From: Chloroflexota bacterium
GTDB lineage: Bacteria; Chloroflexota; Dehalococcoidia; UBA2247; RBG-13-53-26
Assembly: GCA_016875915.1 (NCBI GenBank)
Contig: VGOM01000003.1
Coordinates: forward strand, 1 to 64,000
DNA length: 64,000 nt
Direction: 5' to 3'
Below the pieces are notes generated by a model that worked only from the letters and a program-made list of their open reading frames with translations, was not told where the DNA came from and searched no databases. Each line of letters begins with the position of its first letter. Position 1 is the first letter of the stretch. Below, piece after piece: positions 10,504-19,973 of this stretch. A program made the position numbers and the translations under genes.

Positions 10504-10926
10504 ATGTCTTTTGTGCAACACTCCATCGCAGTGCTCCGGTCCAGGGGCTACAAAGTGACCAAACCCCGGAAGGAGGTCCTGCAGGCGGTGGAAAGGGCCA
10601 CCGTGCCGGTGTCGCCCTACGACATCGGCAGGATGATGGAGCGGCGGGGCAAGCACCTGGACCATGTAACCATCTACCGGGTGCTCGACCTGCTCTGTTC
10701 CCTGAACCTGGTCCACAAGGTCCTGTCGCGGGGGGGATTCGTCAAGTGCGGACTGCTGGACCGGCCGGGCTGTCACCGCTTCCTGGTCTGCCGGCAGTGC
10801 GGGGAGCTGCAGGAGTTCAGCGATGAGGCACTGTGCTATCAGGAGAGCCAGATCGCCCGCAACCTGGGATTCCAGCCCGAGCATCATCTGACGGAGTCAT
10901 CGGGGTTGTGCCGGCGCTGCCGTTGA
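10504..10926 (+). CDS. zur: Fur-family zinc-responsive regulator (Zur)
   Basis: A 140-residue regulator: winged helix (residues about 1-80, with KVTKPRKEVL and HVTIYRVLDLL) and a dimer/metal domain. Structural zinc pairs are C96-x2-C99 and C136-x2-C139; CHRFLVC supplies further ligands. The gene heads an operon with znuA, znuC and znuB, so Zur is a better call than Fur or PerR. It is read from a promoter whose -35 sits in a palindrome (10433-10451), consistent with control of its own operon. Confidence 0.87.
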   Translation: MSFVQHSIAVLRSRGYKVTKPRKEVLQAVERATVPVSPYDIGRMMERRGKHLDHVTIYRVLDLLCSLNLVHKVLSRGGFVKCGLLDRPGCHRFLVCRQCGELQEFSDEALCYQESQIARNLGFQPEHHLTESSGLCRRCR

Positions 10927-10956
10927 CGGCGACATCTCTGCTGAGAGGGGTGGTGC

Positions 10957-11898
10957 ATGTCTGAGATGAAGAAGGGACTGATTGTGAAGGCCTGCTGTCT
11001 CGCGGCGCTGGCGGTGGTCTTGATGGGGCTTCTCGCTGGCATTGCCTGCGACTCCAGCACAGACTCAGGGAAGCTCAAGGTGGTGGCTACCATTCTCCCC
11101 CTGGCCGATTTCGTGAAGAACGTCGGCGGGGGCATGGTGGAGGTGACTACCCTCATGTCAGCCGGGGACAGCCCGCACACGTGGGAACCCTCCCCTGGTC
11201 AGGTGAAGACCATCGCCGATGCCCGGCTCATGGTCATCAACGGTGCCGGGCTGGAGTTCTGGATGGGGAAGGTCATCGAGGCTGCAGCCAGTCCCGACCT
11301 CGTCGTAGTGGACACCTCGGTCTTCCCGGACATGGAGGGATTGCTGCTCACTGCCGACGAGGATGGCCTCGGCAACGACTCGGAGCACGGAGTCAACCCC
11401 CACATCTGGCTGGATCCCTTGCTGGCTCAGCAGCAGGTGGAAGCCATTGCCCAGGCCCTCATAATGGTGGATCCCGGGAACAAGGACAGGTATCTGGAGA
11501 ACGCCACCGCCTTCGTCGCCGAGTTGGAGTCCCTGGATGAAGAGATCAGGGACGCCACGGAGTCCTTCTCGATTCGGGAGTTCATCGCCTTTCACCCCGC
11601 CTGGACCTACTTCGCCAGGAGGTACGGGCTGGTCGAAGCGGCGGTGATCGAGGAGACCCCGGGACGGGACTCGTCGGCCCACAAGAAGGAGGTCATCGAC
11701 TTGGCCCGGGCCCTGGGCATCAGGGCCATCTTCGCCGAGCCCCAGTTCAATCCTCAGGCGGCGCAGAGCATAGCCGACGAGGTGGGCGCCGAGGTCCTCT
11801 TCCTAGACCCCATGGGCAGTCCTGATCTCCCGGACAGGGACAGCTATATCGATCTGATGAGGTACAACGTAGAGCAGATGAGGCTGGCCATGGCATGA
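10957..11898 (+). CDS. znuA: Zinc ABC transporter substrate-binding lipoprotein
   Basis: A 313-residue cluster 9 solute-binding protein. A basic hydrophobic signal ends at AGIAC, a plausible though imperfect lipobox. Metal-binding positions: SPHTWEPSP, NPHIWLDP, FHPAWTYFARRYGL and the late acidic site near IFAEPQFNP. It lacks the long His-rich loop of many ZnuA proteins. The next gene, znuC, overlaps by four bases. Zinc is inferred from the adjacent zur; manganese cannot be excluded by sequence alone. Confidence 0.9.
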   Translation: MSEMKKGLIVKACCLAALAVVLMGLLAGIACDSSTDSGKLKVVATILPLADFVKNVGGGMVEVTTLMSAGDSPHTWEPSPGQVKTIADARLMVINGAGLEFWMGKVIEAAASPDLVVVDTSVFPDMEGLLLTADEDGLGNDSEHGVNPHIWLDPLLAQQQVEAIAQALIMVDPGNKDRYLENATAFVAELESLDEEIRDATESFSIREFIAFHPAWTYFARRYGLVEAAVIEETPGRDSSAHKKEVIDLARALGIRAIFAEPQFNPQAAQSIADEVGAEVLFLDPMGSPDLPDRDSYIDLMRYNVEQMRLAMA

Positions 11899-12677
11899 CC
11901 AACCCGAGCGTCATCAGCCTGCGCGACGTCTGGGTCTTCTACGGCGAGACCCCAGCCCTGAAGGCCATCGATCTGGACATCGAGGATGGCGAGTTCCTGG
12001 GCCTCATCGGTCCCAACGGCAGCGGCAAGACCACCCTGATCAAGGTCATCCTGGGGCTGCTCAAGCCCGACCGAGGCAAGGTGACCGTCTTCGGGGCGCC
12101 GCCGGACAGGCTGGGCCGCAGCCGCGGCCTGATCGGGTACGTGCCCCAGAGGAGCCAGGGCGACTGGACCTTCCCCGTTTCCGTCCGCGACGTTGTCCTC
12201 ATGGGCCGCTACGGCCGGATCGGCCTGTTCAGGCGGCCGACCGCCGCCGATGAGGCGATCGCCCTGAAGTCGCTGGACGCCGTCCAGATGCGGGAATACG
12301 CCGGACGGCACCTGGGCCAGCTGTCCGGCGGCCAGCAGCAGAGGGTGATGATCGCCCGGGCTCTGGCCGGAGAGCCGCTGCTGCTGCTGCTCGATGAGCC
12401 CGCCGCCGGGGTGGACATCAGCGCCGAAGATCAGTTCTACGAGTTGCTTGGGGAACTGAAGGAGAAGCACGGCCTGACCATCGTGGTGGTCACCCATGAC
12501 ATAGCCGTGGTCTCTTCGCACGTGGAGAAACTGGCCTGCCTGAACCAGACCCTCTACATCCACGCATCGCCGGAGGAGGTGCTCACCGCCGGGACGCTGC
12601 AGAAGGTCTACGGCTGCGAGGTGGAGCTCCTGGCCCATGGCCGGATTCCCCACCGGGTGGTTGAGGAGCACGATTGA
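11895..12677 (+). CDS. znuC: Zinc ABC transporter ATP-binding protein
   Basis: A 260-residue ABC ATPase: Walker A GPNGSGKTT, Q-loop GYVPQRSQ, signature LSGGQQQR, Walker B LLLLLDEPAAGVD and the switch His in VVVTHD. It energises import through ZnuB. Both ends overlap its neighbours by four bases (ATGA type), showing translational coupling in the znu operon. Confidence 0.93.
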   Translation: MTNPSVISLRDVWVFYGETPALKAIDLDIEDGEFLGLIGPNGSGKTTLIKVILGLLKPDRGKVTVFGAPPDRLGRSRGLIGYVPQRSQGDWTFPVSVRDVVLMGRYGRIGLFRRPTAADEAIALKSLDAVQMREYAGRHLGQLSGGQQQRVMIARALAGEPLLLLLDEPAAGVDISAEDQFYELLGELKEKHGLTIVVVTHDIAVVSSHVEKLACLNQTLYIHASPEEVLTAGTLQKVYGCEVELLAHGRIPHRVVEEHD

Positions 12678-13495
12678 TGGATATCCTGGAATACGCCTTC
12701 ATGCAGAGGGCCCTGATCGCGGCCGTGCTGGTGGGCCTGGTCTGCTCGGTGATCGGCACCTACGTCGTCCTCAAGAGGCTGGCCTTCATAGGCGCCGGCA
12801 TCTCCCACTCCGCCTTTGGGGGCGTGGGCCTGGGCTACCTGCTCGGCGTGAGCCCCATAGGGGTGGCCATCCCCTTCTCCCTGGCCATCGCCATGGCCAT
12901 CGGCTGGGTTAGCCGCAGGGGCAAGGTTTCGGAGGACACCGCCATCGGCATCTTCTTCGCCGGGACCATGGCCCTGGGCGTGCTGTTCATCGGGCTGAGG
13001 GAGGGCTACAACGTGGATCTCTTCGGCTACCTCTTCGGCTCCATCCTCTCGGTCTCCACTACGGACATCTGGATCATCCTCGGCCTGGGACTGGGGGTCA
13101 TCGGCGTGGTGCTGCTCCTCTTCAAGGAGTTCTTCTTCATGAGCTTCGACGAGGAGATGGCGGCCGTCAGCGGTCTGCCCGTGGACCGCCTGTACTTCCT
13201 GCTGCTGGGACTGATGGCCCTCACGGTGATCGTCTCCATCAAGATTGTGGGCATCATCATGGTCGAGGCCCTGCTGGTCATCCCGGCTGCGGCAGCCTTT
13301 CAGTTGACCCGCAACTTCGTGCGGATGATGCTGCTATCGGTTCTCTTCGGGGTGGTGTCGGGGGTGGCCGGGCTGTTCATCTCGTACCACTTCGACCTGG
13401 CCTCCGGGGCCACCATCGTGCTCACCGCCGGGGCCATCTTCCTGCTGTGTTTCGGCCTCTCCCCCAAGCGCCGCGGGCGCCGGGTCTCGGCCTGA
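12674..13495 (+). CDS. znuB: Zinc ABC transporter permease
   Basis: A 273-residue ABC-3 family permease with about eight hydrophobic helices. It starts FMQRALIAAVLVGLVCSVIGTYVV and contains the family GAGISHSAFGGVGLGYLLG segment and the IKIVGIIMVEALLVIPAA segment that contacts the ATPase. It is the last gene of the zinc operon. A short stem-loop (13500-13517) follows the stop codon. Confidence 0.92.
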   Translation: MMDILEYAFMQRALIAAVLVGLVCSVIGTYVVLKRLAFIGAGISHSAFGGVGLGYLLGVSPIGVAIPFSLAIAMAIGWVSRRGKVSEDTAIGIFFAGTMALGVLFIGLREGYNVDLFGYLFGSILSVSTTDIWIILGLGLGVIGVVLLLFKEFFFMSFDEEMAAVSGLPVDRLYFLLLGLMALTVIVSIKIVGIIMVEALLVIPAAAAFQLTRNFVRMMLLSVLFGVVSGVAGLFISYHFDLASGATIVLTAGAIFLLCFGLSPKRRGRRVSA

Positions 13496-13835: not shown

Positions 13836-14603
13836 CTAGGCCGGTGTCAGCACCGCAGCGAATACCTGCCAGGCCAGCAGCGCCTTCGCCGTAAGGCTCA
13901 GGATGATGTAGACCTTCTCCCCAAACAGGTAGTCCCGCCACGGTCCCACCTGCTTGTACTGCAGCACCATGTTGACCGCAAAGCAGTTGAAGAAGATGAA
14001 GAGCGAAGCGATGATGCCGTACACGAACCCGGGTGGGGATGCCTCAATGCCCGGTGCCCAGACGTAGACCACTATTGCGATCCACGGGATAATGCCCGCG
14101 AAGCAGCCAAACCAGAACGGGAGCCAATTGGCCTTGCCCGGTTCCTCGTACTTCTCCATCAGAGCCCCGAAAAGTATCATGCAAGCGTTGATGCCGAATA
14201 CGGCCGACAGGGCGGCGATGTCGCTGATGCCGCAGATCTGGGAGATCAGCACGATCATCACCGATGAACTGAAGAAGTACTCGATCCAGCGCCCGTAGTT
14301 GCGGTTCTGGAGCAGGTTGCGCTTGTACCATGGGAAAATGGGCGGCGACGCAATCAGCAGCAGAGCGCCGGCCGAGATGGCCATGAAGACGAATACCCCC
14401 CAACCGGTGGGTATGCTGAACAGGTCCTGCATCCCCGGTTCAGTGCCGGGCGGACCCTCCATGAACGTGCCTATCACCGGGAGAGAGAAGTCGTTGGTGA
14501 GCACTGCGATGATGGCTGCCTGGACCGCCAGGATCAGCCCGACGGCTATGTTCCAGATTCGCAGCTGACGAAGTCTCCGTTCAACGGGCTGGTCAATGGC
14601 CAT
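13836..14603 (-). CDS. Heliorhodopsin
   Basis: A 255-residue seven-helix retinal protein. Recognisable family blocks: LTNDFSLPVIGTF...GPPGTEP in the first loop, RWIEYFFSSSVMIVLISQICGI with the counterion Glu E108, GINACMILFGALMEKY, LPFWFGCFAGIIPWI, PGFVYGIIASLFIFFNCFA, and ILSLTAKALLAWQVF with the Schiff-base Lys K240. Heliorhodopsins differ from type 1 rhodopsins in having a cytoplasmic N-terminus; their physiological role is debated. GGGAGGGG precedes the ATG, and a TATAAT promoter lies 75 bases upstream. No carotenoid oxygenase or retinal-synthesis gene is nearby. Confidence 0.93.
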   Translation of the reverse strand: MAIDQPVERRLRQLRIWNIAVGLILAVQAAIIAVLTNDFSLPVIGTFMEGPPGTEPGMQDLFSIPTGWGVFVFMAISAGALLLIASPPIFPWYKRNLLQNRNYGRWIEYFFSSSVMIVLISQICGISDIAALSAVFGINACMILFGALMEKYEEPGKANWLPFWFGCFAGIIPWIAIVVYVWAPGIEASPPGFVYGIIASLFIFFNCFAVNMVLQYKQVGPWRDYLFGEKVYIILSLTAKALLAWQVFAAVLTPA

Positions 14604-14675
14604 GATTCCCCTCCCTTTCCTGCGGCCCTATGGAGTCTCCTCATCCCCCCAGGGCTGCAACATGGTATCGGTCAG

Positions 14676-14705
14676 ATTATATCCCACATAGCCAGCCGTT
14701 GAGAA
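14676..14705 (-). promoter_or_regulatory. Promoter of the heliorhodopsin gene
   Basis: On the minus strand, a perfect -10 TATAAT (14676-14681) and a weak -35 TTCTCA (14700-14705) with an 18-base spacer. It gives a leader of about 65 bases and shows the gene is transcribed alone. Confidence 0.65.
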
Positions 14706-14938
14706 TCGAGAGAGGGCTGTCAGGAGTCTGGAGAGATCACCGGCAGCGCCGACAGGACGCAGGCTGATCCCGGTGATTGTTCTGTCACGGGCAACTGCAC
14801 CGCCTGGCAGTCGGGCGTCACCAGACTGGAGGCCAGCTCGAAGCTCGGGGTTCTATATATCGTCCAGCATAGCCACCATGCCGGCCCCGAACCATGGCGG
14901 GGCAGACGCAGACACCCCTCACCCGAAGGACGGTGGAC
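14706..14938. other. Gene-free region between heliorhodopsin and gapA
   Basis: With the promoter part this makes 335 bases (14604-14938) without a gene. A stem GCCCCG/CGGGGC around 14883-14902 lies downstream of gapA on the minus strand but lacks a T-run. Nothing else is recognised. Confidence 0.5.
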
Positions 14939-16039
<1,101 letters not shown>

Positions 16040-16170: not shown

Positions 16171-17174
16171 TCACGTACCGTCTTGCAGCGGTTGCCGGCT
16201 GCGATTGAGCATGTCGATGAAGGCCTCCAGCTTGGTCTGCAGGTGCGGAGTCAGGACGTAGTCGGCGTTGCCCTCAATGGTAAGGATGGGCGTCTTGATC
16301 ATACTTCGGAATATGATATCACCAATGGCGCGGTGACAGAAAGCCTGAACGTAGTGGATCACCCCGTCCACCCGCCGCCGGCGTATCTCCGCGGAGATGT
16401 CCTCCAGCCGGTTGAATATCGAATAGGGATAGGTGTAGTGGCTGTACTGTTCGGCCAGGGAATGGCCCGGCCGGGGCATGGCGAACTGACGCTGCACCTC
16501 ATTGAAGACCACCGCCGCCCCCTGCCATTCCAGGAAGCGGTAGAGGTCCCGGGCGAACACCGGAGGCACGCCGATGTAGGCCAAGCGGAGCCGGCCCCCG
16601 GGGGTCGGGCGCTGCCGGCACTGCGACAGCAGCTGCTCCAGATCCCGCTGGTACTGCTGGGGGTTTCCGTTGAAATCAGAGCTGGATACCAGCCAGAGGT
16701 GGTTCTCCCATCCGCTGACCAGATCCTCCTTCCAGGTGAGTTCGTCGAGCTGGCCGGCCAGCTCCCGGCACGGCGCCAGGTCATTCCTGACCGCCTCGGC
16801 GGCTGCCACGGTGGTGCCCAGCTGCCCGGCCAGGCTCTCCAGACATTCCTGCATCCGGCCGACGTCGGGCTGGTCGGGATAGGCGAAGGGGATGACCCTG
16901 ACCCCCTTCAGCCTGAGGACCTCCATCAGCATGATGGTGTTGGAGCAGTCGCCGGTGGTCACGCAGAGGACCGTGTCGATCTTCCGGTCGAGGCACACGC
17001 CGTAGATGCCCTTGATCCAGGTGCAGCAGTTCAGGGGGAAGCCGGAACGCTCGGCCAGGCCCACCAGCCGCTCCGGGTTGGGGTCGGTGACGAAGACGTT
17101 GTTCAGGTCAACGGCCGTGTGGCCGGCCGCCTGGAGTATCTCGATGGGGACGGTGGTGGTGATGCCGACCGGTT

Positions 17175-17178
<4 letters not shown>
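16171..17178 (-). CDS. 2-hydroxyacyl-CoA dehydratase D-component-like protein (HgdB type)
   Basis: A 335-residue protein resembling the HgdB/BcrB superfamily (COG1775 type). Candidate cluster ligands are in PLNCCTWIKG, VTTGDCSNT and VQAFCHRAIGD. It also has the YIGVPPVF and TPILTIEGNADYVLTPHLQTKLEAFIDML stretches typical of the C-terminal half. True dehydratases need two such subunits and an ATP-driven activator, neither adjacent here. It overlaps the upstream hydrolase gene by four bases. Its role in the enolase group is unknown. Confidence 0.75.

Positions 17179-19973
<2,795 letters not shown>

What the first reader, a model, noticed from the sequence alone, without database searches (positions are those of the whole stretch)
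13836..14603. Heliorhodopsin in a largely anaerobic-looking gene neighbourhood
Seen: seven hydrophobic helices with heliorhodopsin blocks, Schiff-base Lys (K240) and counterion Glu (E108) intact, plus its own TATAAT promoter. Known: heliorhodopsins occur mainly in single-membrane microbes and their job is debated (signalling, or partners such as photolyase or glutamine synthetase). Here no retinal-synthesis gene or known partner is adjacent; neighbours are zinc uptake and GAPDH. Retinal may be scavenged, or made from a distant locus. A light-sensing protein in a genome otherwise rich in Fe-S and radical-SAM enzymes is noteworthy.
Basis: partly seen in the sequence, partly recalled or inferred. 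Interest (0 to 1): 0.75.

Follow-up and report, generated by a model that had tools for sequence, protein, structure and literature searches.

The report
Heliorhodopsin clade lacking both cavity histidines
This is a real light-sensor-type protein (a heliorhodopsin) in an anaerobic bacterium that appears unable to make the pigment it needs, and it belongs to a distinct branch of the family in which two histidines thought to handle the light-driven proton are both replaced by leucine.

Summary
The ORF at 13836-14603 is a heliorhodopsin (HeR) on the minus strand: PF18761 E=1.6e-96, NCBIfam equivalog over cut-off, TM-score 0.92 to 48C12. An HeR in an anaerobic Dehalococcoidia genome is not itself new: 61 of 294 class genomes carry one, and a Dehalogenimonas HeR is in the literature. 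Phytoene synthase, RPE65-type oxygenase, haem-copper and bd oxidases were not found in its family, so retinal is probably scavenged. The same double change occurs in all 23 distinct full-length members of one strongly supported clade (100/99). All 115 other HeR rows keep H80. The rest of the hydrogen-bond network is intact, and dN/dS is 0.03-0.24. ZnuABC and GAPDH adjacency is not conserved. I read it as a working retinal-binding photosensor with a natural H23L/H80L cavity: a new variant of a known kind. Its photocycle is untested.

The parts
13836..14603 (-). heliorhodopsin, 255 aa, seven TM helices
13884..13886 (-). K240, retinal Schiff-base lysine (K241 of 48C12)
   Evidence: invariant in all full-length clade members and in all others that reach it
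14280..14282 (-). E108, counterion (E107 of 48C12)
14529..14531 (-). L25, replaces H23 of 48C12
14361..14363 (-). L81, replaces H80 of 48C12
14676..14705 (-). promoter-like site TTCTCA-18-TATAAT, inside the remnant below; not shown to be functional
14631..14852 (-). decayed 3' end of a glutaredoxin-PDZ gene (PDZ part only, with an insertion); intact homologue directly upstream of HeR in L024 3558-4085
   Evidence: alignment score 76 against a shuffle maximum of 52 in 2000 shuffles; Pfam of the intact gene
14939..15988 (-). type I GAPDH, upstream on the same strand, gap of 335 bp; adjacency not conserved
10504..13495 (+). Fur/Zur-type regulator plus zinc/manganese ABC transporter (SBP, ATPase, permease), convergent with HeR; adjacency not conserved

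Best explanation
The gene encodes a working, retinal-binding heliorhodopsin that most likely acts as a light sensor in an anaerobic Dehalococcoidia bacterium, using retinal (or a retinoid) taken up from outside. It belongs to a clade in which the two histidines that are thought to hold the Schiff-base proton in characterised HeRs (H23, H80) are leucine, while lysine, glutamate, serines and the intracellular network N16-Y92-E230-R104-E149 are kept. The predicted cycle: light isomerises retinal; the Schiff-base proton goes to E108 and then to the remaining water/E229 cluster instead of a histidine; the later intermediate that depends on H80 (O) is weak or missing; the cycle is slower; output runs by the intracellular hydrogen-bond network. 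Shown: family, fold, residue pattern, clade, purifying selection, lack of known carotenoid and retinal genes. Inferred: retinal scavenging, sensory role, altered photocycle.
For: Family and fold. L/L in all 23 distinct full-length clade members, H80 in all 115 other rows. L/L is one clade, 100/99 support, one change on the tree. Retinal pocket and counterion invariant across the clade. dN/dS 0.03-0.24. No PSY or RPE65 in clade genomes, while three actinobacterial HeR genomes have RPE65. No COX1 or bd oxidase in the family genomes searched. Literature: H23F and H80F slow the photocycle, H80F lacks O, H23F/H82F of TaHeR still forms M (PMC9726877). Redox partners recur beside related HeRs: PerR-like Fur, glutaredoxin-PDZ beside the closest relative.
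Against: No spectroscopy. One report finds H23 and H80 not essential for the pigment (PMC6951262), so the phenotype of the L/L form could be mild. Retinal supply is unproven. The only glutaredoxin-type partner gene near this copy has decayed and no conserved partner remains next to it. The BCD (Blh) search had no positive control.
Confidence: 0.6

Rival explanations
1. Ordinary light-sensing heliorhodopsin in which the His-to-Leu changes are nearly neutral: the water cluster already acts as the proton reservoir, and function is unchanged.
For: H23A, H23S and H80A of 48C12 keep the 550-nm pigment (PMC6951262); M forms in single and double His mutants (PMC9726877).
Against: Neutral sites would drift: instead H80 is kept in all 115 other rows and Leu in all 23 distinct clade members. 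Both changes occur together, and no H/L or L/H intermediate was sampled.
Confidence: 0.2
2. Retinal-free or non-photic use: the protein is maintained as a binder or carrier of a retinoid or other lipid, or as a scaffold, since the host lives without oxygen and cannot make retinal by known routes. Recurrent DegV (fatty-acid-binding family) neighbours fit a lipid role.
For: No carotenoid or retinal genes; DegV within 1 kb of HeR in 7 of 17 clade genomes against 0.16 expected (not corrected for shared ancestry); DUF1295 and SDR neighbours.
Against: Schiff-base lysine, counterion and retinal-pocket residues are invariant in the clade, which a non-photic carrier would not need. The DegV link also holds for histidine-type HeRs and is already reported for some HeRs (PMC9385722).
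Confidence: 0.12
3. Relic or binning artefact: a foreign contig or a decaying gene in this genome.
For: Genome bin 4.4% contaminated; the neighbouring glutaredoxin-PDZ gene has decayed; one family member (G001) has a broken HeR.
Against: The closest relative (89% identity) is another Dehalococcoidia MAG of the same family; 8 of 10 family genomes have HeR; intact ORF with dN/dS 0.07 to the nearest relative.
Confidence: 0.04

Closest known systems
HeR 48C12 (Actinobacteria; PDB 6su3, 6su4, 6uh3)
   Same: fold (TM 0.92), about 50% identity, K241/E107/S237/R104/W105/M115/Y92/E149/E230 kept, GPPG motif in the A-B loop
   Different: H23 and H80 are Leu25 and Leu81; host is an anaerobic Dehalococcoidia without carotenoid genes
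TaHeR (Thermoplasmatales; PDB 6is6, 7u55)
   Same: fold (TM 0.88), lysine and counterion
   Different: TaHeR has H23 and H82 and a YDEI loop motif; its engineered H23F/H82F double mutant (cited in PMC9726877) is the nearest made analogue of the natural L/L form
Histidine-type HeRs of Dehalococcoides/Dehalogenimonas and of the same family (L119-L121, L123, L124, L131, L002-L004, L007)
   Same: same class of anaerobic hosts; some with DUF2177, PerR-like and DegV neighbours
   Different: keep H23 and H80, 44-52% identical, separate branches; G005 and G006 carry both types

Membership tests
Heliorhodopsin (PF18761 / NF038020) | full-length profile match over the curated cut-off | tested here: met
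Heliorhodopsin (PF18761 / NF038020) | SxxxK motif with the retinal lysine in helix 7 | tested here: met
   S236-L-T-A-K240
Heliorhodopsin (PF18761 / NF038020) | Glu counterion in helix 3 (E107 of 48C12) | tested here: met
   E108
Heliorhodopsin (PF18761 / NF038020) | seven TM helices and long extracellular A-B loop with strands | tested here: met
   helices and strands at 40-47 and 57-65, TM 0.92 to 6su3
Heliorhodopsin (PF18761 / NF038020) | inverted topology (N-terminus inside) | not testable with these tools
   assumed from homology
Heliorhodopsin (PF18761 / NF038020) | binds retinal, absorbs light, slow photocycle | not testable with these tools
Characterised HeR mechanism (H23/H80 proton-accepting group) | His at positions 23 and 80 | tested here: not met
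   Leu25 and Leu81; same in the whole clade. This limits the claim on mechanism, not family membership
HeR with known partner operon (glutamine synthetase, photolyase, DUF2177, ABC transporter and others) | partner gene in the same operon | tested here: not met
   nearest same-strand gene is GAPDH 335 bp upstream; ABC transporter is convergent

The most novel reading that the evidence does not exclude
A clade of heliorhodopsins in strict anaerobes works as a photosensor without either histidine of the canonical proton-accepting group, on retinal that the host cannot make, so the light switch of heliorhodopsins does not require histidine protonation.
Probability: 0.4. Interest if true: 0.7.

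Novelty: new variant of a known kind. Interest (0 to 1): 0.5.

Why it matters
What H23 and H80 do is disputed: simulations make them the terminal proton acceptor and trigger of the signal (PMC9726877), while one structural paper calls them non-essential (PMC6951262). A natural clade that fixed Leu at both sites is an evolutionary test of that question. Some genomes (G005, G006) carry both types, and closed genomes whose sizes match cultured Dehalogenimonas strains carry one type or the other, so paired comparisons are possible. It also poses the retinal-supply question: retinal-forming oxygenases need O2, and these hosts lack both the RPE65-type enzyme and the carotenoid precursors.

Tried and rejected
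(1) Retinal made elsewhere in the genome: rejected for known routes by PSY and RPE65 searches with ringing controls. BCD searches never rang, even in controls, so they are uninformative. (2) ZnuABC or GAPDH as partner: of the window's neighbours only the ABC ATPase and the MBL-fold hydrolase have any homologue near another clade HeR, and these are generic families at other positions. (3) DegV link as a new finding: strong in my data but already reported for some HeRs (PMC9385722 citing an earlier analysis), and absent from this window. (4) Presence in viral contigs: none confirmed. (5) Plain tblastn for the glutaredoxin-PDZ remnant gave no hit; only the direct alignment with shuffles showed it. 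(6) TATAAT as a conserved promoter: the upstream region is not conserved in the relatives compared. (8) Some key papers (Chazan 2022, Kovalev 2020, Singh 2018) are not held, so I cannot exclude that the L/L pattern has been noted.

Full report
OBSERVATION. The 255-aa ORF at 13836-14603 is read on the minus strand. It is a heliorhodopsin by Pfam PF18761 (E 1.6e-96), the NCBIfam equivalog NF038020 (319 bits against a cut-off of 100), solved structures (48C12 chains, E about 1e-77) and fold (AlphaFold2 model, pLDDT 87.5; TM 0.92 to 6su3). K240 and E108 are the retinal lysine and the counterion.

HOST. The closest HeRs are from Dehalococcoidia MAGs (L024, 89% identity). The genome (2.16 Mb, 93% complete, 4.4% contaminated) has 9 other genomes in its GTDB family; 8 of the 10 have HeR. 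No haem-copper oxidase was found in any of the ten. No bd oxidase was found in the own genome or the six family members that search covered. Both controls rang. The anaerobic reading is supported.

RETINAL SUPPLY. No match was found in the own family for RPE65-type oxygenase, none over cut-off for phytoene/squalene synthase (one sub-threshold match in G005), and none for photolyase. In HeR-bearing Dehalococcoidia and clade genomes, phytoene synthase was absent from all 27 searched. RPE65 was absent from the 24 searched, while 3 of 5 actinobacterial HeR genomes used as controls have it. BCD searches never rang anywhere and carry no weight. Known retinal synthesis needs carotenoids and O2 (established knowledge), so scavenging, an unknown route, or use without retinal remain. 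Scavenging is my inference.

THE NEW FEATURE. On an alignment with 48C12, H23 and H80 are Leu25 and Leu81 in the window protein. The same L/L pair is in every member of its clade and in no other HeR sampled: 26 L/L rows, 111 H/H and 4 F/H (a few loci were fetched twice; 23 distinct full-length L/L sequences). In a 99-row maximum-likelihood tree the L/L sequences form one group with 100/99 support, in 100% of bootstrap trees. In the 16 clade members first compared, N16, S76, Y92, R104, W105, E107, M115, E149, E230, S237, K241 and W246 are invariant, and Q26 and S111 nearly so; later members agree. Within the mapped hydrogen-bond network the change is therefore confined to the two histidines. 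Other clade-specific columns also exist, for example S109F and A70F. Pairwise dN/dS is 0.03-0.24, so the gene is maintained. Members include closed genomes G232 (2,092,789 bp), G222 (2,068,322) and G101 (1,725,728). Their sizes match Dehalogenimonas strains NSZ-14, GP and WBC-2 in Table 1 of PMC13390414; this identification is an inference from size. In the same genus group, G173 (1,772,240 bp, exactly the size of Ca. D. loeffleri W, PMC11737167) has the H/H type; so does G129 of the sister genus (1,469,720 bp, exactly D. mccartyi 195, PMC4918011).

WHAT THE HISTIDINES DO. In 48C12 and TaHeR they line the Schiff-base cavity. Simulations put the released proton on H80/H23 and derive the signal from it; H23F and H80F slow the photocycle, H80F lacks O, and the TaHeR double mutant still forms M (PMC9726877). 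Another group found them non-essential for the pigment (PMC6951262). The natural L/L clade resembles the double mutant. The expected outcome is that M still forms with the proton held by E108 and waters, and the later conformational intermediate is altered. This step is not shown.

NEIGHBOURHOOD. In the window, GAPDH lies 335 bp upstream on the same strand and a zinc-type ABC operon with a Zur-like regulator is convergent. Neither arrangement recurs next to related HeRs. Between GAPDH and HeR, 14852..14631 encodes 'NPELRAGLQSGD...ITGISLRPVGAAGDLSRLLTALSR'. This aligns with the PDZ domain of an intact glutaredoxin-PDZ gene (L024 3558-4085) that sits 73 bp upstream of the HeR of the closest relative (score 76, shuffle maximum 52 of 2000; Pfam). 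The glutaredoxin half is missing: the 86 bp between the remnant and the GAPDH gene are too short for it. Elsewhere in the clade and in the H/H HeRs, recurrent neighbours are DegV (7 of 17 clade genomes within 1 kb against 0.16 expected, not corrected for kinship), a small Pfam-less membrane protein, DUF2177, and PerR-like Fur regulators. DegV and DUF2177 links are already reported (PMC9385722; PMC11109279); glutaredoxin links too (PMC8612252). These fit a role in redox or light stress, but the window copy has no such partner left beside it.

VERDICT. A genuine heliorhodopsin, probably a functional photosensor using scavenged retinal, in a clade with a naturally histidine-free cavity. It is a new variant of a known kind. 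I found no mention of the L/L clade in the papers held, but key papers are not in that library.

Noticed in passing
window 14631-14852 (-): Decayed 3' end of a glutaredoxin-PDZ gene directly upstream of HeR; intact in L024 3558-4085.
   Followed up: yes
L025 8822-9667, L033 8798-9637, L145 4774-5619, L142 4816-5646, L170 4327-5160, L164 7222-8028: DegV-family gene directly beside HeR in both L/L and H/H types, often followed by a small membrane protein without a Pfam match (L025 9687-10220, L170 3783-4292).
   Followed up: partly
L170 3783-7226: PerR-like Fur regulator, DUF2177, HeR, DegV and the small membrane protein all on the same strand in a Dehalogenimonas-type genome: a candidate light/redox operon.
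   Followed up: partly
L032 7567-8001, L034 3243-3626: PerR-like Fur regulator ends within 1 bp of, or about 50 bp before, the HeR start.
   Followed up: partly
L034 4455-4973: Staygreen-family protein (PF12638, the family of chlorophyll Mg-dechelatases) 21 bp downstream of HeR in a Dehalococcoidales MAG.
   Followed up: no
G001:C239:920-1662 (L112): HeR split over two frames with an internal TAG: broken gene or assembly error in a family member.
   Followed up: no
L029, L030, L035: L/L HeRs in MAGs titled Thermoleophilia or actinobacterium; the HeR of L029 gives the same match as that of G029 (L148), which the genome set places in the window's own class, so that title looks wrong. L035 is unresolved.
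   Followed up: partly
window 16171-18182 (-): HGD-D / double-cubane-type reductase and an MBL-fold hydrolase between enolase and GAPDH on the HeR strand; an MBL-fold homologue also lies near HeR in L034 (2013-2987).
   Followed up: no
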